Origin: Burkholderia diffusa
GTDB taxonomy: Bacteria > Pseudomonadota > Gammaproteobacteria > Burkholderiales > Burkholderiaceae
Assembly: GCF_001718315.1 (NCBI RefSeq)
Contig: NZ_CP013363.1
Coordinates: 1,302,001 to 1,366,000, forward strand
Reading direction: 5' to 3'
Length of the DNA: 64,000 bases
Part shown: piece by piece, positions 5,049 to 52,565 of the stretch
How the letters are laid out: each line of letters starts with the position of its first letter
Numbering within the stretch: the first letter of the stretch is position 1
Translations under genes and position numbers: made by a program
The notes under the pieces: model-generated
The model's input: only the letters and a program-made list of their open reading frames with translations
Database searches by the model: none
Told to the model about the DNA's origin: nothing

Positions 5049-6614
5049 ATGCATCAACGGATTTCGCGCCGTACCGGCAAGCGGGCCACCGCCACGCTGT
5101 CGACGCTGGCCGCCGCGCTGCTGACGTGCGCCGTTCCCGACGCGCACGCAGGCAGCACGATCGAGCTAGGCGCCGACACGACGCTGGACTACACGTTCAC
5201 GCTGAGTTACGGCCTCGGCATGCGCACGCGTGCGCCGAGCGGCAATCTGCTGACGCCCTCGAACATCAATGGCGACGACGGCGATCGCAACTTCGCGAAG
5301 AACAAGCTGATCGAGAACCAGGTCAGCCTGCTCGGCGAAGTGAACCTGAAGCATGACGACTGGGGCGTGTTCGTCCGCGCGAGCACGTTCTACGATCAGG
5401 CCTATCACCGGCCGAACTACAACGACGCTCCGGGCACCGTGAACCAGTCGGGCCAGTACAACAACTTCACGAGCGACGCGCGCTACTGGTCGGGCGGCCA
5501 CACGACGCTGCTCGCCGCCTACGCGTACAACACCTTCAAGATCGGCGCGACGAGCCTGAACGTCAAGGTCGGCGACCAGGTGGTCGCCTGGGGCGAAAGC
5601 CTGTTCTTCCCGAACATCGCGGGCGCGCAAGGGCCGGCAGACGCGACCAAGTCCTATGTCGCGGGCGCTCAGGTGAAGGACATCCTGCTGCCGGTGCCGC
5701 AGATCTCGACGCAATGGCAGATCACGCCGAACTTCAGCCTGCTCGGCTACTACCAGTTCTCGTTCCAGCAGAACCGCCTGACCGCGCCGGGCACGTACTG
5801 GAGCTATTCGGACGTGGTCGGCCCGGGCGCGCAGTTCATCATCGGCCCGGGCGGGATGATCATTCCGCGCGGGGCCGACGACAAGCCGAGCGCCCGCAAC
5901 CAGTGGGGTGTCGGCGCACGCTTGCGCGTGTTCGGCGATACCGAGCTCGGCGTGTATCACCTGCATTACAACGACATGAACCCCAGCGTCGTCACGTCGT
6001 TCTACCCCGTGCTCCAATACCGGCAGACCTATTTCAACAACATCAAGCTGACGGGCGCGAGCTTCTCGACACAGGTCGGTCCGGTCAACGTCGCGGGCGA
6101 AGCGTCATACCGCCAGGGCGCCGCCGTGCTCGTCAACACGCCGACGGGTGCGCAGGCAACGCGCGCGAACGTCACGCAACTCAACCTGTCCGGCATCTAT
6201 TCGATCGGGCCGAGCTTCCTCGCGAATTCGCAGTCGCTCGTCGGTGAAATCACGTACGTGCATGCGGGCGGCATCTCGGCCGTCGACGGCTCGACCACAC
6301 TCGCGAACACGCGCAACGCGCTCGGCCTCGAATTGGCCTGGACCCTCAGCTACAAGAACGTGTTCAACGGCTGGGATCTCGACGTGCCGCTCACGTATAC
6401 GCACGACCTGGCGGGTACATCGCCGCTGGCCGGCGCTCTCGGCTCGCTGACGGGCCAGGGCGACCACCGCGTGACGGCCGGCGTCACGTTCACGCGCCTG
6501 AGCAACCTGTCGCTGTCGCTCGTCTACGCGAAGTTCCTCGGTTCGCCGAATCCTGTCACGCGTCCGCTCGCCGATCGCGACTACGTGCTCGCCACGGCGA
6601 CCTACCACTTCTGA
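5049..6614 (+). CDS. DUF1302 family outer-membrane protein
   Basis: 521-residue protein of the DUF1302 family, predicted to form an outer-membrane beta-barrel. The start is the ATG at 5049 after a GAGGAGACACC ribosome site. The N-terminus has twin basic residues, a hydrophobic core and an AHAG-type cleavage region near residue 37, giving a Sec signal peptide. The mature part is rich in Tyr, Asn and Gly in alternating polar/apolar strands and ends in an aromatic residue (ATYHF), as barrel proteins do. DUF1302 genes are almost always followed by a DUF1329 gene, as here (41 bp). In steroid and other hydrophobic-substrate clusters the pair is thought to aid uptake across the outer membrane. Confidence 0.92.
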   Translation: MHQRISRRTGKRATATLSTLAAALLTCAVPDAHAGSTIELGADTTLDYTFTLSYGLGMRTRAPSGNLLTPSNINGDDGDRNFAKNKLIENQVSLLGEVNLKHDDWGVFVRASTFYDQAYHRPNYNDAPGTVNQSGQYNNFTSDARYWSGGHTTLLAAYAYNTFKIGATSLNVKVGDQVVAWGESLFFPNIAGAQGPADATKSYVAGAQVKDILLPVPQISTQWQITPNFSLLGYYQFSFQQNRLTAPGTYWSYSDVVGPGAQFIIGPGGMIIPRGADDKPSARNQWGVGARLRVFGDTELGVYHLHYNDMNPSVVTSFYPVLQYRQTYFNNIKLTGASFSTQVGPVNVAGEASYRQGAAVLVNTPTGAQATRANVTQLNLSGIYSIGPSFLANSQSLVGEITYVHAGGISAVDGSTTLANTRNALGLELAWTLSYKNVFNGWDLDVPLTYTHDLAGTSPLAGALGSLTGQGDHRVTAGVTFTRLSNLSLSLVYAKFLGSPNPVTRPLADRDYVLATATYHF

Positions 6615-6655
6615 GCGGCCCGGCCGCTCGTCACTCAGCAAGAAGAGGATTTGCC

Positions 6656-8038
6656 ATGAAACGAACTCGTCTCCCCCTCCTGCGCGCGTCGGTGATGGCC
6701 GCGTGCGCGCTCGTCGCGACGGCGTCGTTCCCGAAGGTCACGCCGGACGACCTGAAGGCGCTCGACGGCCCGCTCACGCCGATGGGCGCGGTGCGCGCCG
6801 CGAGCAAGGACAACGGCGTGCCGGAGTGGTCGGGCAAGTGGCTCGGCACGCCGCCCGACGTGCAGTACAAGCGCGGCGGCCGCTATCCCGATCCGTTCGC
6901 GAACGAAAAGCCGATCGCGACGATCACCGCCGAGAACATGGCGCAGTACGCGGAGCACCTGACCGACGGCCAGAAGGCGATGTTCAAGCGCTACCCGGCG
7001 ACGTTCAAGATCAACGTCTACCCGAGCCATCGCGACTTCCGCTACGCGGATTCCGTCTACAAGGACATCCGCACCTACGCGCCCGACTCGACGATGACGT
7101 CCGACGCGAACGGGTTGACCAACGCGCCGCCGCAGGTGCCGTACCCGATTCCGAAGACGGCCGCCGAGCTGCTGTGGAACCAGCGCTTCTCGTCGGCGAT
7201 CGGCACCGAGCAGGCGACCTACGACCAGGCGGTCGTGTACTCCGACGGCAACATCGCGTGGGGCAAGGTGCGCTACGACATCTACTCGCCGCGCAACGTC
7301 GGCAAGTACGACGTGAAGAGCGACCTGAACAACCGCACGTTCTACCGCAACGCGACGGAGCTGCCGCTGTCGGACCGCGGCTCGCTGATCGTCGGCTTCA
7401 CGAACTGGGACAAGGCCGGCGCCGACAACTCGTCGCGCACGTGGATGTACAACCCCGGCACACGGCGCGTGCGCCAGGCGCCGGAATACGGCTATGACCA
7501 GCCACAGGGCCCGGGCGGCTTCCGCACCGTCGACGACGACCGCCTGTACAACGGCCCCGGCGACCGCTACGACTGGAAGATCGTCGGCAAGCGCGAAGTG
7601 TACGTGCCGTACGACAACTACAAGGCGATGGACAGCTCGGTCAAGTATGCGGACCTGCTGACCAAGGGCCACGAGAATCCGTCGTACATCCGCTACGAGC
7701 TGCATCGCGTATGGGTACTGCAGGCGACGTTGAAGAGCGGCTACCGCCACCAGTACGCGAAGCGCGTGCTGTACATCGACGAGGATTCGTGGATGACGCT
7801 GCTCGCCGACAACTACGACGCACGCGGCCAGCTGTGGCGCACCAACGTCGCGACGACGCTGTACGCATTTGACGCGAAGACGTTCTACCCGGGCGTCGTG
7901 TTCTTCCACGACCTGATCTCCGGCGCGTACATGGCCGACCGCCTGACCAACGAAGGACCGATGCCGAAACTCGACAGCAGCCCGCAGTTCAGCGAGGCGT
8001 ATTTCTCGCCGGACGCGATCCGCAGTTCGGGTAACTAA
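6656..8038 (+). CDS. DUF1329 domain-containing envelope protein
   Basis: 460-residue member of the DUF1329 family, which is structurally related to LolA/LolB lipoprotein carriers. The N-terminus (MKRTRLPLLRASVMAACALVATASF) is a signal peptide. Family signatures include PEWSGKWLGTPPDVQYKRGG near residue 60 and VLYIDEDSWMTLLADNYDARG near residue 370. It is co-transcribed with the DUF1302 barrel gene. The likely role is periplasmic handling of a hydrophobic substrate such as a steroid, inferred from family context and the neighbouring degradation genes. Confidence 0.92.
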   Translation: MKRTRLPLLRASVMAACALVATASFPKVTPDDLKALDGPLTPMGAVRAASKDNGVPEWSGKWLGTPPDVQYKRGGRYPDPFANEKPIATITAENMAQYAEHLTDGQKAMFKRYPATFKINVYPSHRDFRYADSVYKDIRTYAPDSTMTSDANGLTNAPPQVPYPIPKTAAELLWNQRFSSAIGTEQATYDQAVVYSDGNIAWGKVRYDIYSPRNVGKYDVKSDLNNRTFYRNATELPLSDRGSLIVGFTNWDKAGADNSSRTWMYNPGTRRVRQAPEYGYDQPQGPGGFRTVDDDRLYNGPGDRYDWKIVGKREVYVPYDNYKAMDSSVKYADLLTKGHENPSYIRYELHRVWVLQATLKSGYRHQYAKRVLYIDEDSWMTLLADNYDARGQLWRTNVATTLYAFDAKTFYPGVVFFHDLISGAYMADRLTNEGPMPKLDSSPQFSEAYFSPDAIRSSGN

Positions 8039-10982: not shown

Positions 10983-11789
10983 TCAGAAGCGCTGCGACGG
11001 AATGTTGCCGCCGTCCACGATCAGTTCCGTGCCGGTCACGTAGCTCGCCTCTTCGGACATCAGGAATCGTGCCACGCGGCCGATCTCGGCCGGATCGCCG
11101 AGCCGGCCCAGCATGATGCGCCGCTCGAAGGTACCGGCGGGCAACGCGTCGACGGCCGGCTGGATCATCGGCGTCAGGATCTGGCCCGGCGAGATCGCGT
11201 TCACGCGGATGCCGTCGTTGCCGAGTCCGTCGGCGAGCGAACGGACCAGCGCGAGCACCCCGCCCTTCGATGCCGTGTAGGCCGGAATCAACCCATTGCC
11301 GAGCGTCGCGTTGATCGACGCGATCGCGACGACCGACGAGCCGCGCTGCGCGCGCAGGTCCGGCAGCATCGCCTGAACGAGCAGCGCGAGCGCACGCAGG
11401 TTCACGTCGACCACGGCGTCCCAGCGCGCTTCGGTCAGCGCGTCGATGCCGCTCTGATCGACCACGCCCGCCGCGTGCACGAGGCCCCCGAGCGTCGGCA
11501 ACGCGGCGCGCGTCGCGTCCAGCGCATCGTCGATCTGGCGGGCTTCGCGCAGGTCGACGCCGATACCGAAGGTCGGCACGCCGTAGCGCTCGGCGAGTTG
11601 CCCCGCCACGTCGCCGGCCTTGTCTGCCTGGATATCCCAGATCGCGATCGGGCGGCCGACCGCCGCGAGCGCTTCCGCGCATGCGTGGCCGATGCCCGAT
11701 GCGCCGCCCGTCACGACGACACCGGTGGCGGGTGCGTCCAGTGCAATGCGCGATACGTCGCCATGCGCGGAAGAAGTTTGAATCGTCAT
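10983..11789 (-). CDS. SDR family oxidoreductase
   Basis: Short-chain dehydrogenase of 268 residues. It has VVVTGGASGIGHACAEAL near residue 23, the catalytic IASINATLGNGLIPAYTASK and the C-terminal YVTGTELIVDGGNIPSQRF. AGGAGACAGCAG precedes the ATG. It is the last gene of the minus-strand block 10983-17945 that also holds a Rieske oxygenase, a SnoaL-like protein and an Old Yellow Enzyme. It is probably a hydroxysteroid dehydrogenase; the substrate position is not readable from sequence. Confidence 0.9.
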   Translation of the reverse strand: MTIQTSSAHGDVSRIALDAPATGVVVTGGASGIGHACAEALAAVGRPIAIWDIQADKAGDVAGQLAERYGVPTFGIGVDLREARQIDDALDATRAALPTLGGLVHAAGVVDQSGIDALTEARWDAVVDVNLRALALLVQAMLPDLRAQRGSSVVAIASINATLGNGLIPAYTASKGGVLALVRSLADGLGNDGIRVNAISPGQILTPMIQPAVDALPAGTFERRIMLGRLGDPAEIGRVARFLMSEEASYVTGTELIVDGGNIPSQRF

Positions 11790-11832: not shown

Positions 11833-13416
11833 TCATGCCGCATCCCGGCCGGCCATTTCACGCAGCGCCTGCTTCAATATCTTGCCCGATGCGTTAAGCG
11901 GTAGCGCGTCGACGAACGCAATGCCGCGCGGCACCTTGTAGTTCGCCATCCGTGTGCGGCACCACGCGGCGAGCGTCGGCTCGTCGAGCACCGCGCCCGC
12001 GCGCGGCACGACGAACGCGTGGCCGGCTTCGCCGAGCCGCTCGTGCGGCACGCCGATCACCGCGACCTGCGCGACATCCGGATGCGCAGCGATCATGTTC
12101 TCGATTTCCGCCGGATAGCAGTTGAATCCGCCGACGATGAACATGTCCTTCAACCGGTCGGTAATGCGCAGGTAACCGCGTTCGTCGAGCACGCCCACGT
12201 CACCCGTATGCAGCCAGCCGTTCTCGTCGATCGCATCGCGGGTCGCGCCATCGTCGTCGAGGTAGCCCTGCATCACGTTGAAGCCGCGAATCAGGATCTC
12301 GCCCGGTGTCCCGACCGGCACATCGGCCCCTGCCTCGTCGACGCATCGCAGTTCGATCCCCGGCAACGGATGGCCGCAGGTCGCCGCGGCGACCTGCTCG
12401 TCGTCGCCGGCGCGGCAGACTGTCGCGAGCCCGCAGCACTCGGTCAGCCCGTATGCGGTCAGCACCGACGCGAAGCCGAGCCGGTCGCGCATCCGCGCGA
12501 TCAGGTCGGGCGCGACATTCGCCGCGCCGGTGACCGCTACGCGCAACGACGACCGGTCGAAGCGGTCGAGACCCGGATGCGCGAGCAGGCTCAAGTAGAG
12601 CGTCGGCGAACCGGGCAGGAAGGTCACGCGTTCGTCCGCAATGCGGCGCAGCACCGTTTCGGCATCGAACGTCGCCTGTGGCAGGATCGTCGCGCCGCGA
12701 ATCAGCGCGGCGAGCCAGCCGGCCTTGTAACCGAACGCATGAAAGAACGGATTGACGATCAGGTAGCGATCGCCAGCCTGCAGCCCGACGAGCGTCGACC
12801 ATTGGTCGAATGCGGCCAGGTTCTGCCCGTGCGCGGTCACGACGCCCTTCGGTCGGCCGGTCGTGCCGGAAGTGAAGAGCACGTCCGATGGCGCATGCGG
12901 TCCGATGGCGGCGATCCGTGCGTCGAGCACGGCTTCGGGAACGGCCTCGGCGCGAGCGACGAACGCGTCCCAGCCTGCCGCGCCGCCCTGCGGATCGCGC
13001 AGCACGACCATGTGCCGCAGGGACGGCAGCGCATGCCCGGTGAGCATGTCCGGGTAGCGCACGTCGAGAAATTCGCCGATCGAGAACAGCACGCGCGCGC
13101 AGCTGCGATTCAGGATGTCCGCGGCTTCGTCGCCCTTGAGCCGCGTGTTCAACGGCACCAGCGCGGCGCCCGCGAAATGGATGCCCAGCGCGGCGACGAT
13201 CCACTCGTGCACGTTCGGCGCCCAGATGGCGACGCGCTCGCCCGGCTGCACGCCGAGTGCGATCAGCGCACGGGCCGCACGGCGGGCCGCGTCGTAAAGT
13301 GCCGCGTAATCGATGGAGGAACCATCATCGACGATCGCCACTTGCGTCGCGTAACGGCGCGCGGATGCGGCCAGCATCGCGGGAATCGTCGACGGCGCTG
13401 GAAGCATTGAGGTCAC
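11833..13416 (-). CDS. FadD3-like acyl-CoA synthetase (AMP-forming)
   Basis: ANL-superfamily CoA ligase of 527 residues. The GTG start at 13416 overlaps the stop of the upstream OYE gene (GTGA) and has GGAG six bases upstream; an ATG three codons later is an alternative. Motifs are the P-loop LFTSGTTGRPKGV near residue 190, TAYGLTECCG, GWLHTGDVG, the hinge IKDMF-like LKDMFIVGGFNCYP and the catalytic Lys in NASGKILKQAL. It is closely similar throughout to the second ligase at 50973-52565, so the two are paralogues. FadD3 activates the steroid C/D-ring propionate HIP. This copy may take a hydroxylated variant or a side-chain acid instead. Confidence 0.88.
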   Translation of the reverse strand: MTSMLPAPSTIPAMLAASARRYATQVAIVDDGSSIDYAALYDAARRAARALIALGVQPGERVAIWAPNVHEWIVAALGIHFAGAALVPLNTRLKGDEAADILNRSCARVLFSIGEFLDVRYPDMLTGHALPSLRHMVVLRDPQGGAAGWDAFVARAEAVPEAVLDARIAAIGPHAPSDVLFTSGTTGRPKGVVTAHGQNLAAFDQWSTLVGLQAGDRYLIVNPFFHAFGYKAGWLAALIRGATILPQATFDAETVLRRIADERVTFLPGSPTLYLSLLAHPGLDRFDRSSLRVAVTGAANVAPDLIARMRDRLGFASVLTAYGLTECCGLATVCRAGDDEQVAAATCGHPLPGIELRCVDEAGADVPVGTPGEILIRGFNVMQGYLDDDGATRDAIDENGWLHTGDVGVLDERGYLRITDRLKDMFIVGGFNCYPAEIENMIAAHPDVAQVAVIGVPHERLGEAGHAFVVPRAGAVLDEPTLAAWCRTRMANYKVPRGIAFVDALPLNASGKILKQALREMAGRDAA

Positions 13417-14519
13417 GGGGCACTCCGTTGGATGTGAGCAACGCCCGCGGCAGATGCGGCGAACGGCGGATAATCGGTGAAGCCGCGCGCGCCGGGCGTA
13501 TACAACGTGGCGCGATCAAACGCGGCGAGCGGCGCGCCGTCGCGCAAGCGGGCGACGAGGTCGGGGTTCGCGATGAAATGCCGCGCGAACGACACGGCGT
13601 TGGCGTGGCCGGCTGCCAGCACGTTGGTCGCGCTGCGCGCGTCGAATCCGTCGTTCGCGATCAGCGCGCCACGAAAATGCCGGCGAGCGAGCGCGAACGC
13701 ATCGAGTCGACGGTCCGGCGAACGGCTCACGTGCAGATACGCGAGCCCGAGCGGTGCCACCGCATCGAGCAAGGTGCCGTACGTCAGCGCGGGATCGTCG
13801 TCTTGCATGTCGTTGTACGGATTGCCGGGGCAGATCCGCAGCCCGACCCGCTGCGCGCCGATCGCGCCGGCCATCGCCTCGAGCGCTTCGATCGTGAAAC
13901 GGGCGCGGCGCGCCGGCGAGCCACCGTAGTCGTCGGTGCGGCGGTTCGAGCAGGCGAGCAGGAACTGCATCGGCAAATAGCCGCTGCTCGCGTGCAGCTC
14001 GACGCCGTCGAAGCCGGCGGCACGCGCGTTGACGGCCGCCTGCCGGAAACTGTCGATCACGCCGGGAATCTCCGCACGGGCGAGCGCGCGCGGCAGGTCC
14101 GTCGGCACCTGGCCGTGCCCGTCCGCGTGAATCGTGCCGCTCGCACGCAGCGCGGACGGGGCGACGGTCTCGGCTTGCGCCCCCTTGTTCAAGTACGACG
14201 CGACACGCCCCACGTGCATCAGCTGGAGCACGATGCGGCCGTTCGCGCGGTGCACGGCGTCGGTCACGCGCCGCCACGCGTCGATCTGGACTTGCGTCGC
14301 AATACCGGGCGTGCGGCAGTAGCCCTTGCCGTCGGCATGCGGGTACGTTCCTTCCGCGACGATCAACCCGGCGCCCGCGCGCTGCGCGTAGTACGCCACG
14401 TGGAGGTCGCCGGGCGCGTCGTGCTCGTCCGCGCGGCTGCGCGTCATCGGCGCCATCACGATGCGGTTTGGCATCGTGATGGCGCCGATGCGCACGGGTT
14501 CGAAAAGTGGCTTGGTCAT
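13413..14519 (-). CDS. NADH:flavin oxidoreductase (Old Yellow Enzyme family)
   Basis: OYE-family FMN ene-reductase of 368 residues, TIM barrel. The N-terminus MTKPLFEPVRIGAITMPNRI, the segment LQLMHVGRVA, the motif ELHASSGYLPMQFLLACSNR and RTDDYGG are diagnostic. It reduces activated C=C bonds of enones. It is next to a SnoaL/BaiE-like dehydratase (22 bp upstream) and two SDRs. In bile-acid 7-dehydroxylation, dehydration by BaiE or Hsh2 produces a conjugated double bond that a flavin ene-reductase removes. This pairing suggests the OYE reduces a delta-6 or similar steroid alkene, which is inference from context. Confidence 0.9.
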   Translation of the reverse strand: MTKPLFEPVRIGAITMPNRIVMAPMTRSRADEHDAPGDLHVAYYAQRAGAGLIVAEGTYPHADGKGYCRTPGIATQVQIDAWRRVTDAVHRANGRIVLQLMHVGRVASYLNKGAQAETVAPSALRASGTIHADGHGQVPTDLPRALARAEIPGVIDSFRQAAVNARAAGFDGVELHASSGYLPMQFLLACSNRRTDDYGGSPARRARFTIEALEAMAGAIGAQRVGLRICPGNPYNDMQDDDPALTYGTLLDAVAPLGLAYLHVSRSPDRRLDAFALARRHFRGALIANDGFDARSATNVLAAGHANAVSFARHFIANPDLVARLRDGAPLAAFDRATLYTPGARGFTDYPPFAASAAGVAHIQRSAP

Positions 14520-14541
14520 CAGTCAGGCCTCCGTGCGGGCG

Positions 14542-15165
14542 TCAGCGCGTGCGAATCTTCGGGAACGCCGAGCCGCGTCGCATCGTCGCGAGGAATGCAT
14601 TGAGCGGCGCCGGCGGCGCGACGTCGGGCAGCCCGTCCGGCTTGCCGTTCCAGAACGCCTTCCACGATGGCCACAGCGCATGCCATGACCCGTCATACGG
14701 CTCCCGCCCCGGCCAGCGCATCTTGCGCTCGCCGATCGGTGGGCGGTTCAGGTCGGATGCATACAGGTAGCACGGGTAACGCCGGCGGAAATACCAGCGC
14801 CCGTCGATCCGTTCGTAATCGTCCCAGTACAGCATCTGCATCACGACCCACTCGGGGCCAGTCTCGTGCTCGTTCTTCGAATAGACCACGCCGCTCGCGT
14901 GGTCGGCATCCGAGAACTCGATGACGTGGCCGCCGATGTGATGCGACGTGACGGTGAACTGGTGCCGCAAGGTGTCGTCGATCCAGCGTTTCAGATACGC
15001 GCGCCCGACCTCGTCCTTGCTGACCGCGACGTCCTCGGGGAAGAGGTTCGTCCATGCGTCGAGATCGCGCATGTCGAGCGCGAGCGCGTATTGCGCGGGC
15101 AACATCCGGATTGCCTCGATGGATTCGAGCCGGTCGATCCGCGCGAGCAGGGTCGTGTCGTTCAT
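14542..15165 (-). CDS. SnoaL-like (NTF2 fold) protein, possible steroid dehydratase of BaiE/Hsh2 type
   Basis: 207-residue protein of the nuclear-transport-factor-2/SnoaL-like fold. The ATG at 15165 overlaps the stop of the upstream SDR (ATGA). Tyr26 and Asp31 in QYALALD have the same five-residue spacing as the catalytic Tyr and Asp of bile-acid 7-alpha-dehydratase BaiE, and His80 in GGHVIEF sits where BaiE has its catalytic His (GHTPEI context recalled from the family). It is some 40 residues longer than BaiE, with a Trp-rich C-terminal tail (SWHALWPSWKAFW). Dehydration of a hydroxysteroid is the favoured role. Many SnoaL-like dioxygenase-associated and unknown proteins share the Tyr/Asp pattern, so this is not certain. 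Confidence 0.85.
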   Translation of the reverse strand: MNDTTLLARIDRLESIEAIRMLPAQYALALDMRDLDAWTNLFPEDVAVSKDEVGRAYLKRWIDDTLRHQFTVTSHHIGGHVIEFSDADHASGVVYSKNEHETGPEWVVMQMLYWDDYERIDGRWYFRRRYPCYLYASDLNRPPIGERKMRWPGREPYDGSWHALWPSWKAFWNGKPDGLPDVAPPAPLNAFLATMRRGSAFPKIRTR

Positions 15166-16013
15166 CGTGCGGGTGCTCCGGCCGGATCGGGTTGCGGTTC
15201 GCTTTGCGCGCGCCGTTCGGCGGACGTATCCGACACGTAGTCGGTCGCGCCGACGTCGAGCCGGCAGGTCTTGCCGCCGTCGACGACGAGGCTCTGGCCG
15301 GTGATGTACGACGCTTCGTCGGATGCCAGAAACAGGATCGCGTCCGCGACCTCGCGCGGCTCGCCGATGCGCCGCATCGGCGCCGCGCGCGCGGTGCCGT
15401 CGCGCATTGCGTCGTCCTGCAGCGCCTCGCGCGTGCCCTCGCTCCATACCACGCCCGGAATCACGACGTTCACGCGGATCCCGTCGGCAGCGCCTTCGAG
15501 CGCAACCGCGCGGCTGAAATTGAGCACGCCGGCTTTCGCCGCGCCGTATGCTGACAAGCCGGGGCTGCCGAGCAGTCCCACGACCGAGCCGAGATTGACG
15601 ATTGCGCCGCCGCCCTGCCGCTTCATCACACGCATCGCTGCGCGCGTGCCGAAGAACGCGACGTCGAGCGAGCCGCGCAGGCAGCGGTGCCAGTCTTCCG
15701 TGCTCACCTGGTCGACGAGTCCCCACGTGTAGTTCACCGCGTTGTTCACCATCACGTCGAGGCGGCCGAAACGCCCGAGCGTCGCATCGACCGCGCGGCC
15801 GACCGATGCCTCGTCGGTCACGTCGGCCTGGATCCATCCGGCTTCGCCGCCCGCCGCGACGATTTCGCGCGCCACCTGCTCGAGCGGCTCGCGACGCCGG
15901 CCGCACAGCATCACGCGCGCGCCCTCCGCCGCGAAACGCCGCGCCGTCGCCGCGCCGATCCCCGTACCCGCGCCGCTGATCAGCGCGGTCTTGTCTTGCA
16001 AACGTCCTGCCAT
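15162..16013 (-). CDS. SDR family oxidoreductase
   Basis: Short-chain dehydrogenase of 283 residues: LISGAGTGIGAATARRF near residue 10, DVMVNNAVN (Ala-Val instead of the usual Ala-Gly after NN), the catalytic NLGSVVGLLGSPGLSAYGAAK and YITGQSLVVDGGKT. A C-terminal extension of about 35 residues, rich in Ala, Gln and Arg, follows the usual end. It is translationally coupled to the downstream SnoaL-like gene by a 4-bp overlap and lies 9 bp after another SDR. A hydroxysteroid dehydrogenase that prepares the substrate for the dehydratase would fit the arrangement. Confidence 0.9.
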   Translation of the reverse strand: MAGRLQDKTALISGAGTGIGAATARRFAAEGARVMLCGRRREPLEQVAREIVAAGGEAGWIQADVTDEASVGRAVDATLGRFGRLDVMVNNAVNYTWGLVDQVSTEDWHRCLRGSLDVAFFGTRAAMRVMKRQGGGAIVNLGSVVGLLGSPGLSAYGAAKAGVLNFSRAVALEGAADGIRVNVVIPGVVWSEGTREALQDDAMRDGTARAAPMRRIGEPREVADAILFLASDEASYITGQSLVVDGGKTCRLDVGATDYVSDTSAERRAQSEPQPDPAGAPAR

Positions 16014-16022
16014 CGTTGTCTC

Positions 16023-16850
16023 CTAGATCATGTACATGCCGCCGCTGACCGACAGCGTCTGCCCGGTCATCTGCCGGGCATCGTCGGACGCGAGGTAAAG
16101 GATCGAGCGCGCGATGTCGTCCGGTTCGGCCATACGGCCGAGCGGAATCGCGCGTTCGAGTTCGCGCGCCCACTCGTCGGGAATCGACTGCATCATTGGC
16201 GTGCGGGTCGGGCCCGGGCAGATCGCATTCACGCGAATGCCGCGCGGGCCGAGATCGCGCGCGAGACAGCGCGTCAGCCCGAGGATCGCGGCCTTCGACG
16301 CGCAATAGGCCGGCGGCCCTTCGCCGGACAGCGCCGACACGCTCGCGATGTTGACGATCGCGCCGCGCACGCCCGAGCCGATCATCAGCCGCACCGCCGC
16401 GCGCGAGCAGAAGAACGTGCCGTTCAGGTTGATGTCGACGATGCGGCGCCAGCCCGCGTCGGTGAGGTCGACGATCGTGTCGGAAAACACCGTCGGCATT
16501 TCGCCGCTCGCCAGTTGCTGCGCACGCTGCGCAATGCGCTGCTGCGCGAGCTCGAAGCCGTCGCCCGGTACCTGCCCCGCGCCCGCGTTGTTGACCAGCA
16601 CGTCGAGCCGCCCGTAGCGCCGGCCGATCGCGTCGAACAGCTTGCCGACCGCGCCGCTGTCGGCCACGTCGCACGCATGCGCCAGCCCCGTCCCGGCCGC
16701 CCGTGCAAGGGCAATCGTCTCTTCCGCGCGCTTGCCGTCGAGATCGGCCGCAACCACCGTCGCGCCGCGCGCAGCGAACAGGAGCGCGGTCGCGCGTCCC
16801 ATCCCCGAACCGGCGCCCGTGACGAGCACCACCTTGTGCTTGAATGGCAT
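16023..16850 (-). CDS. SDR family oxidoreductase with an insertion after the NNAG motif
   Basis: Short-chain dehydrogenase of 275 residues with VLVTGAGSGMGRATALLF (residues 8-25), NNAG at 87-90, catalytic NIASVSALSGEGPPAYCASK and the C-terminal MTGQTLSVSGGMYMI. Between NNAG and DLTDAGWRRIVDINLNG there are about 38 residues (GQVPGDGFELAQQRIAQRAQ and so on), roughly 20-25 more than in a standard SDR. This suggests a lid or oligomer contact next to the active site. It is the second gene of the Rieske-led operon. The substrate is probably a hydroxysteroid, by context. Confidence 0.9.
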   Translation of the reverse strand: MPFKHKVVLVTGAGSGMGRATALLFAARGATVVAADLDGKRAEETIALARAAGTGLAHACDVADSGAVGKLFDAIGRRYGRLDVLVNNAGAGQVPGDGFELAQQRIAQRAQQLASGEMPTVFSDTIVDLTDAGWRRIVDINLNGTFFCSRAAVRLMIGSGVRGAIVNIASVSALSGEGPPAYCASKAAILGLTRCLARDLGPRGIRVNAICPGPTRTPMMQSIPDEWARELERAIPLGRMAEPDDIARSILYLASDDARQMTGQTLSVSGGMYMI

Positions 16851-16862
16851 GGTCGACCTCCT

Positions 16863-17945
16863 TCAGATCGTGTGAAGCCGGCTGGCCGCAAGCGGCGGCA
16901 CGTCGTCCAGCGTGCGCCACGCGCCGTGTTGCCATTCGAATACCTTCTTGCGGTCAAGGTCGCTGGGCAGCTTCGCGACGTCGGTGTAGAACTGCCGGTA
17001 CCAGTCGCGCAACTGGTAGATCGGGCCGTCGCCTTCGCACAGCACCGGGAAATCGATTCGCGTCTTGTTGTGCCAGATCTCGACGTCCTGGAAGAACGAG
17101 CGGTGCGCCTGCTCGATGTACGCGTTCGCGATCGCGCGGTTTGCGTCGTCGGACAGCGCCGGATCCTTGCGGATCATCACGCCGTAGCGCAGATCGAAGC
17201 TGTGCTGGTCGATCGGCACGTGGCAGTTGAGCAGGATGCTGTCGACCGCGCGGCCGTCGACGTCGGCCGTCATCCGCGTGATGTGATACGCGGGCCCGAA
17301 ATACGCGCTGTCCGCGACGAGCCCGTTGCCGAGCAGCTCGCTCCGGCCGCCGCGAAACATCTGGTAGCCGGTATGGCCGACGAAGGTGTTGCAGAAGTAG
17401 TTCGCCGGCGAGCCGTGGACCGGGCCGAAATGGGCGACGTCCGCGAGGTTGTCGACGAGTTCGCGACAGTTCGTGTGGATCGTCATCTTGCGAACCGCCC
17501 ACGGCGTCCATTCGCCGGAGGAGCACGCGCCGATGCGTGGAATCGCGACGTGCGCAGGCGGCTCGCCGCGTTCGTGGTCGTGCCAGACGAACAGCAACGC
17601 GTTCTGCTCGCAGGTGTGCCACGAGAGGATTCGCGCCTTGGGCGGCACGCGGGTTGCATACGGCACGTGCTCGCAGGTGCCGTCGCCGCCCCAGCGCCAG
17701 TGATGGAACGGGCAGACGAGCGTGTTGCCGCGCACCTCGCCCTTCGACAGGTCGGCGCCCATGTGCGGACACCATGCGTCGACGATCCGGATCGCGCCGT
17801 CGTCGCCCGCGAACGCGACGAGCTGCGTGCCGAAGATGTCGAGCCGGTGCGGCTTGCCGTCCCGATAGCCGGCGGCGATCCCGAGGCAATGCCAGCCGCG
17901 CGCATACCGGTCGCCCGCCGTCCCGGCGGCGTGGTGCAGTTCCAT
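16863..17945 (-). CDS. Rieske non-heme iron oxygenase, 3-ketosteroid 9-alpha-hydroxylase KshA-like
   Basis: Oxygenase of 360 residues from the ATG at 17945 (GGAGGGAACAC upstream). The Rieske 2Fe-2S motif is CPHMGADL...CPFHHWRWGGDG (residues about 64-90). The mononuclear iron region is NCRELVDNLADVAHFGPVHG (two His plus acid), with FFQDVEIWHNKTRIDFP later. These match KshA in order and wording. It is one of two KshA-type genes (the other is at 24454-25533), while only one reductase, KshB at 52606-53655, is present. This copy heads the operon with SDRs, SnoaL, OYE and FadD and is divergent from a LuxR regulator, so it may hydroxylate a modified substrate. Confidence 0.92.
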   Translation of the reverse strand: MELHHAAGTAGDRYARGWHCLGIAAGYRDGKPHRLDIFGTQLVAFAGDDGAIRIVDAWCPHMGADLSKGEVRGNTLVCPFHHWRWGGDGTCEHVPYATRVPPKARILSWHTCEQNALLFVWHDHERGEPPAHVAIPRIGACSSGEWTPWAVRKMTIHTNCRELVDNLADVAHFGPVHGSPANYFCNTFVGHTGYQMFRGGRSELLGNGLVADSAYFGPAYHITRMTADVDGRAVDSILLNCHVPIDQHSFDLRYGVMIRKDPALSDDANRAIANAYIEQAHRSFFQDVEIWHNKTRIDFPVLCEGDGPIYQLRDWYRQFYTDVAKLPSDLDRKKVFEWQHGAWRTLDDVPPLAASRLHTI

Positions 17946-18286
17946 GTGTTCCCTCCGTGATCGAATCGTATGCGGGCCCATTGTGGGAACCGGGTCCCGG
18001 CCGAACATACTCCGGACGGACGAGATCGCCGCCCGCGCGTGAATCCGGCGCGAGTTCGTGCGCGGAACGGAGCTCAACAACCCCGGTTTGGACTAGAAAA
18101 CGCATCCCGCCGCATCGGTCGCACGGCGGGTGCCGCGCATCTCGACCGCCGGACCGACGAGCCGCCACCGTCGCTCGACGAAGCTAGTGGCACGCACGCA
18201 TTCACGTCACCGCTTGCGTACGGCAACATCGCGATATCGCCCGCCGCCCTCGAAGGCGACTCAACGACAGGACAGGAGACACCGCA
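17946..18286. promoter_or_regulatory. Divergent intergenic region, KshA-like operon / LuxR regulator
   Basis: 341 bp without a gene between two divergent starts. It holds the ribosome sites GGAGG (KshA side) and AGGAGACACCGCA (LuxR side). A GGGAACCGGGTCCC palindrome-like element lies near 17986-17999. Both promoters and a regulator site are expected here, but no consensus -35/-10 pair was convincing. Confidence 0.5.
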
Positions 18287-19447
18287 GTGCCCACGACCGC
18301 CCCGCCGCCCGCGCACGCCGGCACCGACCTTGCCGAGGCGACGCCCGCCGAACTGAGCGACCTGATCGGCCTCGTCTACGAGGGCGTGACGTCCACCGTA
18401 CCGTGGCGCGGGCTGCTCGACGCGCTCCGGGTCCGGCTCGCGGCCAACTATGCGACGCTCGTGCTGCGGCCGCCCGCCGACGCGATGAAAGGGCTGATCG
18501 TCACGTCGAGCCTCGTCGATACGTCGGTCGGCACCGGCGCGTATCTGCAGCGTTTCCATACGCTCGACGCGTTCGTCAACCTGCCGCGCGACACGGTCAC
18601 GACCGTCCACGAAATGCTCGGCGAACGCGGTTGGCTCGACAGCGAGAAATACCGGAACTTCGATCGCATGTATGACGTGCTTCACGTGATGGGCGCCGAC
18701 ATTCACGTCGACGCCGACAACGAGTGCCGGCTGCGCATCTGCCGGCCGCACGGCGCCCCGCCGTTCGACGCGAACGACAAGCGGCTGTGCCGGTTCCTGC
18801 TGCCACATCTGAAGCGCGCGGCCGCTCTGCGCGCGAGCCTCGAAGTCACGGCCAACGAGCGTCGCCTGTACGCGGAGACGGTCAGCCAGCTGCGGATCGG
18901 CGCGATCCTCCTCGACGAGCAGGCCCGCGTGATGAAGACCAACGACGACGCGGCGCAGGCGCTGGCTGAACGCGACGGGCTGTTCATCGTCGACGGCAGG
19001 CTCGCCTGCGACGGCGCCGCGAACCAGCGCATGCTTCAGGCGCTGATCCGCGACGCGCTGGCACGCAAGGCCGGCGCCGCGCGCGGGATGACGCTCGCGC
19101 GCCGCGCCGGGCGTGCACGGCTGGGCGTGCTCGTGCGGCCGCTGCCGGTCGATGAGCAATCGGGCCGCAAGCGTCGCGCAGCGGCGGTCGTCCTGTTGCG
19201 CGATCCCGACTGCCGGCCGCAGATGTCGGGCGAGACACTGCAGGCGATGTTCAACCTGACGCGCAGCGAAGCATCGCTTGTACTGCACCTGACGCAAGGG
19301 TTGTCGCTGCAGGACGCCGCCGAAACGATGGCGATCCGCCACAACACCGCGCGTTCGCATTTGCGTGCGGTATTTTCGAAAATGGGCGTGACGCGGCAGA
19401 CCGAACTGATCCAGGCGATCGAGCATTGCGTGATCCCGCTCCAGTAA
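18287..19447 (+). CDS. LuxR-family transcriptional regulator (TeiR-like)
   Basis: 386-residue regulator starting at GTG 18287, decided by AGGAGA upstream. The last 70 residues form a LuxR/NarL helix-turn-helix: FNLTRSEASLVLHLTQGLSL, QDAAETMAIRHNTARSHLRA and VFSKMGVTRQTELIQAI. No receiver domain is seen; the long N-terminus probably senses a ligand. A paralogue with the same architecture is at 61602-62777. Size and setting resemble TeiR, the LuxR-type testosterone regulator of Comamonas. It is divergent from the KshA-like operon and followed by an MFS exporter. Steroid-responsive activation is inferred. Confidence 0.9.
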   Translation: MPTTAPPPAHAGTDLAEATPAELSDLIGLVYEGVTSTVPWRGLLDALRVRLAANYATLVLRPPADAMKGLIVTSSLVDTSVGTGAYLQRFHTLDAFVNLPRDTVTTVHEMLGERGWLDSEKYRNFDRMYDVLHVMGADIHVDADNECRLRICRPHGAPPFDANDKRLCRFLLPHLKRAAALRASLEVTANERRLYAETVSQLRIGAILLDEQARVMKTNDDAAQALAERDGLFIVDGRLACDGAANQRMLQALIRDALARKAGAARGMTLARRAGRARLGVLVRPLPVDEQSGRKRRAAAVVLLRDPDCRPQMSGETLQAMFNLTRSEASLVLHLTQGLSLQDAAETMAIRHNTARSHLRAVFSKMGVTRQTELIQAIEHCVIPLQ

Positions 19448-21129: not shown

Positions 21130-21262
21130 GTTCGCCGTTCGCCGTTCGCCGCTCGCCGTTCGCCGTTCGCCGTTCGCCGTTCGCCGTTCGCCGTTCGCCG
21201 TTCGCCGTTCGCCGTTCGCCGTTCGCCGTTCGCCGTTCGCCGTTCGCCGTTCGCCGTTCGCC
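21130..21262. repeat. Heptanucleotide tandem repeat, 19 copies of GTTCGCC
   Basis: The unit GTTCGCC is repeated 19 times in 133 bp without interruption. Only the fourth copy (21151-21157) differs, reading GCTCGCC. The array lies between convergent genes: it starts 37 bp after the MFS stop and ends 45 bp before the stop of the 82-codon minus-strand gene. Since 7 is not a multiple of 3, all frames stay open, which gives spurious seven-residue repeat peptides on both strands. It is a likely variable-number tandem repeat. Confidence 0.98.
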
Positions 21263-21307
21263 GGCAGCCTGACGTCATGAGCCGTCAGGCGTCAAGCACG
21301 CACCGCG

Positions 21308-24453: not shown

Positions 24454-25533
24454 TTACCGCGATTCGAATACGTGATGCAGTGCCGGCGGCGATTCGCCGT
24501 CGCGGATCTTCATCTCGAACGTCTTGCGCGCGACGCTCGACGGCCGCACATCGGCCGCGTCCAGGTAGAACTGCGAATACCAGTCGCGCATCTGGTACAG
24601 CGGCCCATCGCCTTCGCACAGCAGCGGGTTGTCGATCCGCGTCTTGCTGTGCCAGATGTCGACATCCTCGTAGAACGCGCGTTGCGCTTCCTTCACGTAC
24701 GCGTTCGCGATCTCCATGTTCTGTTCGTCGCTCAGGCCGGCCACCTTCTTCACGATCACGCCGTAGCGCAGCTCGAAGCTGTTCATGTCGATCGGCACGT
24801 GGCAATTCAGCAGCACCGAATGAATCGGCTGCCCGCCGCTCTGCCCCGTCATCTGCGTAATGTGCACGGCCGGCCCGAAATACGTCGACAGCGCGGTCAG
24901 ACTGTCGCCGCCGAGCTTCTCGCTGCGGCCGACCATCAGTTGCGTCGCCTTGTGGTCCTCGAACAGGTTCGCGAAATAGTCGATGGGCGCGTGGTGGACG
25001 GTCGCGAAGTGCGCGACATCCGAAATGTTGTCGACCAGCTCGCGGCAATTCGCGTGGATCACCATCTTGTCGACCACCCAGTCCGACCATTCGTCGGAGA
25101 AGCACACGTCGAGGCGCGGAATCGCGACTTCCGGCGGCGGCGCATTGCCTTCCGGGTCGTTCCACACGAACAGCAGGTTGTTTTCCTCGCAGGTCGGCCA
25201 CGCGCCGATGCGCGCCTTCGGCGGAATCCGTTTGCAGTAGGGGATCGACGCGCACTGCCCTTCGCCGTTCCATGCCCAGCCGTGGAACGGGCAGACGAGA
25301 TTGTCGCCGTCGACCGTGCCGAGGCTCAGATCGGCGCCCATGTGCGGGCAATACGCATCGACGATGTTGATCCTGCCGGTCGAATCGGCGAACGCGGCCA
25401 GCTTGCGGCCGAAGATGTTCAGCGTATGCGGCTTGCCGTCCTTGTAGTCGCGGGCGAGCCCGAGGCAGTGCCAGCCGCGCGCATAGCGCTGCGCGAGCGG
25501 CTGGGCTTCGATCTTGTAAGGGCGTGCGGACAT
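24454..25533 (-). CDS. kshA: 3-ketosteroid 9-alpha-hydroxylase oxygenase component (KshA)
   Basis: Rieske oxygenase of 359 residues. The cluster motif is CPHMGADL...CPFHGWAWNGEG (residues about 62-90). The catalytic iron region is NCRELVDNISDVAHFATVHH, followed by HSVLLNCHVPIDMNSFELRY and FYEDVDIWHSKTRIDNPLLC. The wording matches KshA of actinobacteria closely, including RDWYSQFYLDAADVRPS near the end. With KshB it hydroxylates C9 of 1,4-diene-3-one steroids, which breaks ring B spontaneously. It is the last gene of the long hsaC-to-kshA run, 69 bp after the MMPL transporter. Being in the main catabolic operon, this is the better candidate for the housekeeping KshA of the two copies. Confidence 0.93.
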   Translation of the reverse strand: MSARPYKIEAQPLAQRYARGWHCLGLARDYKDGKPHTLNIFGRKLAAFADSTGRINIVDAYCPHMGADLSLGTVDGDNLVCPFHGWAWNGEGQCASIPYCKRIPPKARIGAWPTCEENNLLFVWNDPEGNAPPPEVAIPRLDVCFSDEWSDWVVDKMVIHANCRELVDNISDVAHFATVHHAPIDYFANLFEDHKATQLMVGRSEKLGGDSLTALSTYFGPAVHITQMTGQSGGQPIHSVLLNCHVPIDMNSFELRYGVIVKKVAGLSDEQNMEIANAYVKEAQRAFYEDVDIWHSKTRIDNPLLCEGDGPLYQMRDWYSQFYLDAADVRPSSVARKTFEMKIRDGESPPALHHVFESR

Positions 25534-50972: not shown

Positions 50973-52565
50973 TCAGGCCGCCGCCTCGGTGCCGGCGCGC
51001 AGCCGGTACTTCAGCACCTTGCCGGCCGCGCTCGTTGGCAGTTGATCGACGAACGTGAAATGCCGCGGCACCTTGTAGTTCGCCATGTTGGCGCGCGCCC
51101 AGTCGTTCAGCGCGTCGGCGTCGGTGTGCGCGCCGGGACGCAGCACGACGTACGCATGCCCGACTTCACCGAGCCGCTTGTCGGGCACGCCGACCAGCGC
51201 GACCTGCGCGATCGCCGGATGCGCGGCCAGCAGCCGCTCGATCTCCGCCGGATAGCAGTTGAAGCCGCCGACGATGAACATGTCCTTGATCCGGTCGGTG
51301 ATCTTCAGGTTGCCGTTCGCGTCGACGCAGCCGAGGTCGCCGGTATGCAACCAGCCGTCCGCATCGACGGCCTCGCGCGTCGCGTCCGGCTGGTTGAAAT
51401 AGCCGCGCATCACGTTGTAGCCGCGCACCCAGATCTCGCCGGTCTCGTCCGGGCCGAGCGCGACGCCGTCCTGTCCCGCGATGCGCAGCTCGACGTCCGG
51501 CATCGGCCGGCCCGACGTGCAGGCGACCGTCTCCGCGTCGTCGCCATGACGGCACAGCGTCGCGAACCCGCACGATTCGGTCAGCCCGTAGCCGGTCAGC
51601 ACGGTCTCGAAGCCGAGCTCCGCGCGCATCCGCTCGATCAGGCTCGGCGCGATCGCGGCCGCGCCCGTCACCGCGATCCGCAGCGACGACAAGTCGCGCG
51701 TCGCGCGTTCGGGCGCATCGAGCAGCGCGTAGTACAGCGTCGGCGGGCCCGGCAGCACCGACACACGTTCGTCGGCAATGCGGCGCAAGACGTCGGCGGG
51801 CTGGAACACGAGATGCGGCAGCACGGTCGCACCACTCGACAATGCGGCGAGCCAGCCCGCCTTGTAACCGAACGTATGGAAAAAAGGATTGACGATCAGA
51901 TAACGGTCGTCCCGGCACACGCCGGCGATCGTGGCCCATGCCTGTGCGGCCCGCAGGTTCTGTCCATGCGCGGTCATCACGCCCTTCGGGCGGCCCGTCG
52001 TGCCGGACGTGAACATCAGGTCCATCACGGTATCCGGTGTCACCTGCGCCTCCCGCTCGCGCACGGCGGCGAGCGGCACCGCCGCGCCGCGCGCGAGGAA
52101 TGCGTTCCAGGTTTCGTCGCACGCGCCGGACGGCGGTTCGCCGTCGAACACGACGACACGTTCGAGCGTCGCGGGACGGTGCGGCGCGAGCATCGCCGGA
52201 TAGGATTCGCCGAGAAAGGTGCCGCAGCAGAACAGCAGCCGCGCGCCGCCGTCGTGCAGGATGCCGCCCACCTCCATGCCCTTCATCCGTGTGTTGACCG
52301 GCACGAGAATCGCGCCGACGGTGTGGATCGCCAGCGCCGCGACAATCCATTGCGGCAGGTTCGGCGCCCATACGGCGATCCGGTCGCCGGCGTCGATGCC
52401 GCTCGCGAGCAGCGCGCGCGCCGCCTCGAGACGCGCCGCGTCGAGTTCCGCATAGGTCAGCCGGCCGTGCTCCGACTCGATCGCCGGATGCGCGCCGTGG
52501 CGCGCGGCAGCCCGCGCGATCAACGCAGGTGTGGTGAGGATTTCGTTATCCATCGTCATAGGCAT
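50973..52565 (-). CDS. fadD3: HIP-CoA ligase (FadD3-like acyl-CoA synthetase)
   Basis: ANL-family ligase of about 530 residues; ATGs at 52565, 52559 and 52553 are all possible starts and none has a strong ribosome site. It has LMFTSGTTGRPKGVMTAHGQ, VNPFFHTFGYKAGWLAAL, LTGYGLTESCGFATLC, DGWLHTGDLGCVDANGNLKI, IKDMFIVGGFNCYPAEIERL and Lys in TSAAGKVLKYRL. FadD3 activates HIP, the C/D-ring propionate left after HsaD, so it links upper and lower pathways. A paralogue lies at 11833-13416. Being in the operon with hsaA, kstD, hsaB and kshB, this copy is the better FadD3 candidate. Confidence 0.9.
   Translation of the reverse strand: MPMTMDNEILTTPALIARAAARHGAHPAIESEHGRLTYAELDAARLEAARALLASGIDAGDRIAVWAPNLPQWIVAALAIHTVGAILVPVNTRMKGMEVGGILHDGGARLLFCCGTFLGESYPAMLAPHRPATLERVVVFDGEPPSGACDETWNAFLARGAAVPLAAVREREAQVTPDTVMDLMFTSGTTGRPKGVMTAHGQNLRAAQAWATIAGVCRDDRYLIVNPFFHTFGYKAGWLAALSSGATVLPHLVFQPADVLRRIADERVSVLPGPPTLYYALLDAPERATRDLSSLRIAVTGAAAIAPSLIERMRAELGFETVLTGYGLTESCGFATLCRHGDDAETVACTSGRPMPDVELRIAGQDGVALGPDETGEIWVRGYNVMRGYFNQPDATREAVDADGWLHTGDLGCVDANGNLKITDRIKDMFIVGGFNCYPAEIERLLAAHPAIAQVALVGVPDKRLGEVGHAYVVLRPGAHTDADALNDWARANMANYKVPRHFTFVDQLPTSAAGKVLKYRLRAGTEAAA

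What the first reader, a model, noticed from the sequence alone, without database searches (positions are those of the whole stretch)
13413..17945. Candidate dehydratase/ene-reductase module for removing a steroid hydroxyl aerobically
One operon joins a KshA-like Rieske oxygenase, two SDRs, a SnoaL-like protein and an Old Yellow Enzyme. The SnoaL-like protein has Tyr26, Asp31 and His80 in the spacing of the BaiE active site, and BaiE-type enzymes dehydrate 7-hydroxy bile acids after oxidation to the 4-ene-3-one. An OYE next door could reduce the resulting diene. The combination suggests an aerobic dehydroxylation route tied to 9,10-seco degradation, so the strain may degrade bile acids or plant sterol derivatives with extra hydroxyls. 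The Tyr/Asp spacing is common in SnoaL-like proteins, so the substrate is open.
Basis: partly seen in the sequence, partly recalled or inferred. Interest (0 to 1): 0.72.

Follow-up and report, generated by a model that had tools for sequence, protein, structure and literature searches.

The report
Steroid C12-hydroxyl removal gene cassette
These bacterial genes most likely strip the extra hydroxyl from carbon 12 of bile-acid-type steroids by a known four-enzyme route, packed here with spare copies of two other steroid enzymes in species that seem unable to take the bile-acid side chain off.

Summary
Gene order and families match the published C12 module SteA-SteB-SteC/Hsh1-SteD/Sor1: 12alpha-OH to ketone to 12beta-OH, then, once ring A is gone, dehydration and alkene reduction. 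A Stutzerimonas locus collinear with the Chol1 cluster carries the same genes (SnoaL 70% identical). The model's top structural matches include BaiE, a scytalone-dehydratase-like protein and LinA. The histidine aligned with BaiE's is His76 (His75 by LinA), not His80. The operon continues to 10983 and adds a second KshA, a second HIP-CoA-ligase-like protein and a third SDR, with a LuxR-type gene opposite. In Burkholderia it is accessory (3 of 65 genomes). KshA-bearing cassettes form one clade spanning six genera. Two side-chain markers found in 4 of 4 comparison genomes have no match above 41% identity in 16 of 16 cassette genomes (two not exhaustively scored for one marker). That decoupling is the new part: likely substrates are side-chain-free 12-hydroxysteroids, perhaps leaked by bile-acid degraders. 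BaiE-like and Hsh3-like candidates for 7-dehydration lie 13-15 kb outside the window.

The parts
16863..17945 (-). KshA1, Rieske 3-ketosteroid 9alpha-hydroxylase oxygenase of the cassette
   Evidence: KshA_C 9e-73; PDB KshA 4qdf 1e-111; Rieske and D..H....H motifs intact; cassette clade 99/94
16023..16850 (-). SDR1, SteA-like (12alpha-dehydrogenase proposed)
   Evidence: SDR; first SDR of the ste order; NAD-type Asp in 15 of 15 cassette-type loci that have it (rule recalled)
15162..16013 (-). SDR2, SteB-like (12-ketone reductase proposed)
   Evidence: SDR; second SDR of the ste order; NADP-type Arg in 17 of 17 cassette-type loci (rule recalled)
14542..15165 (-). SnoaL/NTF2 protein, SteC/Hsh1-like 12beta-hydroxysteroid dehydratase
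13413..14519 (-). Old Yellow Enzyme, SteD/Sor1-like alkene reductase
   Evidence: Oxidored_FMN 4e-69; Ser179 and Met101 in place of Asn and Trp in 25 of 25 relatives examined
11833..13416 (-). ACS1, acyl-CoA ligase, probably a StdA3/ScdA-type (HIP-CoA) ligase
   Evidence: AMP-binding 4e-88; 57% to ACS2, which lies next to KshB
10983..11789 (-). SDRb, third SDR of the cassette, role open
   Evidence: SDR; truncated 163-aa remnant, 88% identical, at the same site in G051
18287..19447 (+). LuxR-type regulator, divergent from KshA1
   Evidence: GerE 7e-6, above Pfam's cut-off; same place in G009 and several other cassette loci
18077..18096 (-). Candidate operator CTAGTCC-N5-GGGGTTGT upstream of KshA1
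   Evidence: TAGTCC upstream of KshA1 in 15 of 16 cassettes; longer pattern in 11 of 16, with 6 matches elsewhere in 1.58 Mb
24454..25533 (-). Core KshA2 (comparator, not part of the cassette)
   Evidence: 58% to KshA1; present in the cassette-free Burkholderia loci
50973..52559 (-). Core ACS2 next to KshB (comparator)
   Evidence: AMP-binding; present in cassette-free loci

Best explanation
[quoted passage not shown] Proposed steps: SDR1 (SteA) oxidises 12alpha-OH with NAD+; SDR2 (SteB) reduces the 12-ketone with NADPH to 12beta-OH; KshA1 9alpha-hydroxylates the 12beta-hydroxy-ADD-type steroid, ring B opens and C9 becomes a ketone; core enzymes remove ring A; the 12beta-OH is now beta to the C9 ketone, so the SnoaL protein (SteC) removes the C11 proton with its Asp/His pair and expels water; the OYE (SteD) reduces the enone to ordinary HIP; ACS1 or ACS2 attaches CoA. 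Shown here: genes, order, fold, conserved residues, cassette clade, accessory distribution. Published for relatives: the SteA-SteD steps. Inferred: that they hold here, the E1cB chemistry, and the roles of KshA1, ACS1 and SDRb.
For: Published order SteA-SteB-Hsh1-Sor1 in Chol1 and the same in CNB-2; L040 collinear with Chol1: HsaD, MFS, SDR, SDR, SnoaL 70%, OYE 66%, CoA ligase. SteC is described as SnoaL/NTF2, BaiE-like, acting on 12beta-OH, SteD as an alkene reductase. SnoaL-OYE-SDR clusters in two named bile-salt degraders, SnoaL 66%. Hsh1/Sor1-like genes induced by cholate in C. tardaugens. NAD-type SDR1 and NADP-type SDR2 fit the cofactors reported in Chol1. BaiE and other dehydratases are the top fold matches.
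Against: No TA441 or Chol1 sequence was on hand, so orthology rests on order and family. The two SDRs are only 49% and 54% identical to those of L040, and SDR2's partner in the two sphingomonads is unclear (33-42%). Two of 14 cassette loci (L003, L019) lack SDR1. 27 of 80 loci have no OYE directly after the SnoaL gene. No assay.
Confidence: 0.85

Rival explanations
1. One reading: the SnoaL protein is a BaiE/Hsh2-type 7-hydroxysteroid dehydratase acting on 7-hydroxy-4-en-3-ones, and the OYE reduces the 4,6-dienone.
For: SnoaL fold with Tyr/Asp/His as in BaiE; the same genome has a steroid locus.
Against: Order and homologues match the C12 module. Two other proteins 14-15 kb upstream match BaiE far better (4e-21 and 2e-14 against 1.6e-3). 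[quoted passage not shown]
Confidence: 0.06
2. Same C12 module, but part of an ordinary bile-acid pathway: the strain removes the side chain by a route not detected here, such as the Sphingobium Chol11 type.
For: Table 1 marks most canonical side-chain genes as absent in Chol11, which still degrades cholate. The locus neighbourhood also holds BaiE-like and Hsh3-like genes.
Against: PMC4810484 passages: all Burkholderia, Ralstonia and Cupriavidus with the pathway lacked most cholate side-chain genes; C. necator ATCC 17699 grew on testosterone, not cholate. Chol11-type genes were not searched here.
Confidence: 0.25
3. The cassette removes another ring-C oxygen, for example at C11 (corticosteroids), with the same chemistry.
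For: The enzymes act on ring C; cassette genomes lack the side-chain markers tested, so the substrate is open.
Against: A C11 hydroxyl is alpha, not beta, to the C9 ketone, so simple beta-elimination does not apply (my inference). Close homologues sit in published C12 clusters.
Confidence: 0.05

Closest known systems
steABCD of Comamonas testosteroni TA441 / steA-steB-hsh1-sor1 of Pseudomonas stutzeri Chol1
   Same: The same four functions in the same order: SDR, SDR, SnoaL dehydratase, alkene reductase
   Different: Here preceded by a second KshA and followed by a StdA3/ScdA-type ligase and a third SDR, with a LuxR-type gene opposite, in genomes without the two side-chain markers tested. In Chol1 the gene after sor1 is StdA2
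bsd II cluster of Caenibius tardaugens and its counterparts in Sphingobium and Novosphingobium
   Same: Hsh1-like, Sor1-like and SDR genes in one cluster
   Different: SnoaL-OYE precede the SDRs; an AraC regulator lies beside it in C. tardaugens and S. herbicidovorans; no KshA or CoA ligase named in the bsd II passages seen
BaiE, bile acid 7alpha-dehydratase
   Different: About 21% identity over the aligned part, longer C-terminus; homologues belong to C12 clusters
Hsh2 and Hsh3, 7-hydroxysteroid dehydratases of Sphingobium Chol11
   Same: Steroid dehydratases; Hsh2 is also NTF2-like
   Different: Act at C7 on 3-keto-4-enes; their likely kin in this genome lie outside the window

Membership tests
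steABCD / hsh1-sor1 C12 module | Adjacent SDR, SDR, SnoaL dehydratase and alkene reductase in this order | tested here: met
   Window order against Table 1 and L040
steABCD / hsh1-sor1 C12 module | Sequence orthology to TA441 SteC or Chol1 Hsh1 | tested here: inconclusive
   Those sequences were not on hand; 70% to the gene at the same place in the Chol1-collinear L040
steABCD / hsh1-sor1 C12 module | Activity on 12-hydroxysteroids | not testable with these tools
   Needs an assay
steABCD / hsh1-sor1 C12 module | SteA uses NAD+, SteB NADPH (as reported for Chol1 activities) | tested here: met
   Sequence signature only: Asp in SDR1, Arg in SDR2 (rule recalled)
SnoaL/NTF2 dehydratase (BaiE-like fold) | NTF2 fold with Tyr-Asp-His | tested here: met
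BaiE/Hsh2 7alpha-hydroxysteroid dehydratase | Closest relationship to BaiE rather than to other NTF2 dehydratases | tested here: not met
   phmmer 1.6e-3 to BaiE, behind a scytalone-dehydratase-like protein and LinA; other proteins of this genome reach 4e-21 and 2e-14
Classical Old Yellow Enzyme | Oxidored_FMN domain, active-site His and Tyr | tested here: met
   4e-69; His176 and Tyr181
Classical Old Yellow Enzyme | Second carbonyl-binding residue Asn or His | tested here: not met
   Ser179, and Ser in 25 of 25 relatives; Asn in the four PDB relatives displayed
KshA, 3-ketosteroid 9alpha-hydroxylase | KshA_C domain, Rieske and mononuclear-iron motifs | tested here: met
Canonical cholate pathway | Sal1- and StdA2-type side-chain genes in the genome | tested here: not met
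   No match at E 1e-60 in G000 for either query; PF01796 also none

The most novel reading that the evidence does not exclude
A horizontally shared, self-contained C12-deoxygenation cassette, with its own KshA and CoA ligase tuned to 12-oxygenated intermediates, lets testosterone-type steroid degraders without bile-acid side-chain genes live on 12-hydroxy-androstadienediones leaked by bile-acid degraders: a genomic signature of steroid cross-feeding.
Probability: 0.35. Interest if true: 0.6.

Novelty: new variant of a known kind. Interest (0 to 1): 0.42.

Why it matters
A 2016 comparative study (PMC4810484, passages seen) read hsh1/sor1 as cholate-only genes. Finding the whole C12 module, with a duplicated KshA and CoA ligase, in genomes without the side-chain markers tested separates nucleus deoxygenation from side-chain catabolism. 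It gives a concrete genotype for testing whether soil bacteria scavenge 12-hydroxysteroids released by bile-acid degraders, and offers KshA, dehydratase and ene-reductase variants for steroid biocatalysis.

Tried and rejected
Rejected: (a) C7 as the target of this operon (see rivals). (b) ACS1 as StdA2: the ligase after the OYE in L040 has ACS2 as its best match at only 24%, while ACS1 and ACS2 share 57%. (c) His80 as the BaiE-equivalent histidine. (d) The fold match as proof of substrate: LinA and a scytalone-dehydratase-like protein score like BaiE.

Led nowhere: Pfam at 1e-8 missed the regulator's HTH (found at 0.01). PF12172 in the own genome gave nothing, but only 150 of 320 candidates were scored, so I lean on PF01796 (33 of 33 scored). 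PF01796 does not separate all cassette genomes: 8 of 16 have none, 8 of 16 have one to eight. The 709-aa OYE-like protein of L040 found only a 33% match in G000 (57 of 67 candidates scored), which I did not use. A script pattern for the Trp/Met position failed and was mended. tRNA scan: none in the window.

Not done: search for Chol11-type side-chain genes; trees of ACS1/ACS2 or of the SDRs; comparison with TA441 or Chol1 sequences; a structure model of the OYE or KshA.
Full report
WHAT IS THERE. Five minus-strand genes occupy 13413-17945 as described. The operon goes on: OYE and acyl-CoA ligase overlap by 4 bp and a third SDR follows after 43 bp, so the unit is KshA1-SDR1-SDR2-SnoaL-OYE-ACS1-SDRb (17945 down to 10983), with a LuxR-type gene opposite at 18287-19447. 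It lies in a 9,10-seco-type steroid locus; I read KstD, KshB, HsaA, HsaB, HsaC, HsaD, TesEFG, IpdAB, an IpdC-like gene and several acyl-CoA dehydrogenases from Pfam hits, translations and order (these gene names are my assignment). The window is G000:C2:1302001-1366000 of a 6.86-Mb, three-contig genome. The genus label Burkholderia rests on the nearest named record, L003, a Burkholderia sp. MAG.

WHICH MODULE. The review PMC8399759 (passages; section 6 with Table 1) lists for P. stutzeri Chol1: HsaD RS11155, SteA RS11165, SteB RS11170, Hsh1 RS11175, Sor1 RS11180, StdA2 RS11185; for C. testosteroni CNB-2, SteA, SteB, ORF7, ORF6, TesB in a row. PMC13101464 (abstract and sections 3 and 7) calls them SteA (12alpha-dehydrogenase), SteB (12beta-hydrogenase), SteC (dehydratase of the 12beta-hydroxyl, SnoaL/NTF2, like BaiE at about 28% identity) and SteD (alkene reductase). 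S. stutzeri K1 (L040) has HsaD, an MFS gene, SDR, SDR, SnoaL, OYE, then a CoA ligase: the Chol1 order, with SnoaL 70% and OYE 66% identical to the window's. S. herbicidovorans MH and N. aromaticivorans DSM 12444, bile-salt degraders in PMC12175502 (passages), hold SnoaL-OYE-SDR-SDR-SDR with 66% SnoaL identity. In C. tardaugens proteins similar to Hsh1 and Sor1 are induced 4.1- and 8.2-fold in cholate (PMC12882949, passages). SDR1 carries an NAD-type Asp and SDR2 an NADP-type Arg (rule recalled), fitting the NAD+ oxidation and NADPH reduction reported for Chol1.

MECHANISM. Ring-B opening turns C9 into a ketone. A 12beta-hydroxyl is then beta to it and the C11 proton between them is acidic. Proton removal by the Asp/His pair and loss of water give an enone, a normal OYE substrate. 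This would explain why removal follows loss of ring A in the published pathway. It is my inference, not an assay. The OYE family departs in two places from the four PDB relatives displayed: Ser179 for Asn and Met101 for Trp, in 25 of 25 sequences examined, perhaps to admit a bulky bicyclic substrate.

WHAT IS DIFFERENT. KshA and the CoA ligase are each duplicated in the locus, core copy and cassette copy (58% and 57% identical). Among 65 same-genus genomes the SnoaL gene is in 3; 52 have a KshA_C match and 36 a strong one (below 1e-50, my count). In G044 and G060 the core genes run through the site without the cassette; G055 and G051 have other genes there, and G051 keeps a truncated SDRb (163 aa, 88%); G009 has the whole cassette, G053 has it without SDR1. 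G053 and the L003 record (G065) appear to be the same MAG, as their contigs have the same length. Each of the 14 cassette genomes has at least two KshA genes. In a 57-row tree the 17 cassette KshA rows form one group (99/94), next to the KshA of four Pseudomonas/Stutzerimonas ste genomes (96/88, on a long branch of 0.78), then to non-cassette third copies from four cassette genomes (96/96), and apart from the core copies. The cassette SnoaL is one side of a branch in an 85-row quick tree (SH-aLRT 84). Named hosts are Burkholderia, Paraburkholderia, Ralstonia, Cupriavidus, Crenobacter and Pseudomonas, and plasmid pBB1 of C. necator N-1.

SIDE-CHAIN GENES. Two queries from the Stutzerimonas locus, taken by position and family as Sal1 and StdA2, were sought at E 1e-60 in 16 cassette and 4 comparison genomes (one of them the source of the queries). 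Sal1: 4 of 4 (86-100%) against 0 of 16. StdA2: 4 of 4 (71-100%) against 6 of 16 with only 36-41% relatives, all Pseudomonas, and 10 of 16 with none (in G067 and G069 only 64 of 90 and 64 of 67 candidates were scored). PF01796, a ChsH2-type domain, is absent from G000, G009 and G065 and from 8 of 16 cassette genomes; the other 8 have one to eight. It is in 8 of 9 other ste genomes (not G078, Pandoraea) and 1 of 4 cassette-free Burkholderia. PMC4810484 (passages) reports that all Burkholderia, Ralstonia and Cupriavidus with the pathway lacked most cholate side-chain genes, that C. necator ATCC 17699 grows on testosterone and not cholate, and that ORF6/ORF7 (sor1/hsh1) are conserved in predicted cholate degraders only, while noting that ORF6 is induced on both substrates. 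The cassette genomes depart from that rule. PMC8540908 (passages) reports release of degradation intermediates in cultures and soil slurries and discusses cross-feeding. Hence the proposal that the cassette serves side-chain-free 12-hydroxysteroids. Against it: Sphingobium Chol11 degrades cholate with most of these genes marked absent, and I did not search for its own route. The literature listings showed no paper on a KshA-bearing ste cassette; most subscription papers, including the original Hsh1/Sor1 work, are not held.

THE C7 QUESTION. The stronger NTF2 gene and the EthD gene are found at full strength in the same 35 of 65 genomes (one NTF2 copy, in G058, has a stop inside); 34 of the 36 strong-KshA genomes have both. 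So C7-type candidates are core to the genus's steroid gene set and the C12 cassette is the accessory part.

VERDICT. A known catabolic module in a new genomic variant.

Noticed in passing
L087:5044-5526 (-), 5754-6275 (+), 6326-7042 (+); 13-15 kb before window base 1: Divergent pair of BaiE-like NTF2 proteins (2e-14 and 4e-21 to BaiE) and an EthD protein 49% identical to an Hsh3 homologue; candidate 7-hydroxysteroid dehydratases, found in the same 35 of 65 same-genus genomes.
   Followed up: partly
window 18077-18096 and upstream of KshA1 in other cassettes: Conserved TAGTCC element, often followed by GGGATG or GGAC, upstream of KshA1 in 15 of 16 cassettes (not L019); a candidate operator for the divergent LuxR-type regulator.
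   Followed up: partly
G051:C1 about 181 kb (joined locus position 35989-36480): Truncated SDRb beside TesG, next to an efflux-type operon: a likely remnant of a lost cassette.
   Followed up: no
L003 and L019: Cassettes without SDR1 (SteA-like), with KshA1, SDR2, SnoaL, OYE and ACS1 kept.
   Followed up: no
L017 (Pandoraea pneumonica, genome G078): SnoaL (76%) and OYE (68%) pair, but no KshA match at E 1e-40 and no PF01796 match in the genome.
   Followed up: no
L021, L026, L027, L031, L036, L039 and others: 27 of 80 SnoaL loci, several of them Thauera, have no OYE directly after the gene, so another enzyme may reduce the alkene there.
   Followed up: no
L086:16003-19940: A fourth NTF2 protein (138 aa) followed by three SDRs and an NmrA-like gene, about 20-24 kb before the window.
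   Followed up: no
window about 21130-21280: Short direct repeat downstream of the MFS gene that reads as repeated FAVRRSP in one frame and NGERRTA in another (seen in the ORF translations; no repeat tool run).
   Followed up: no
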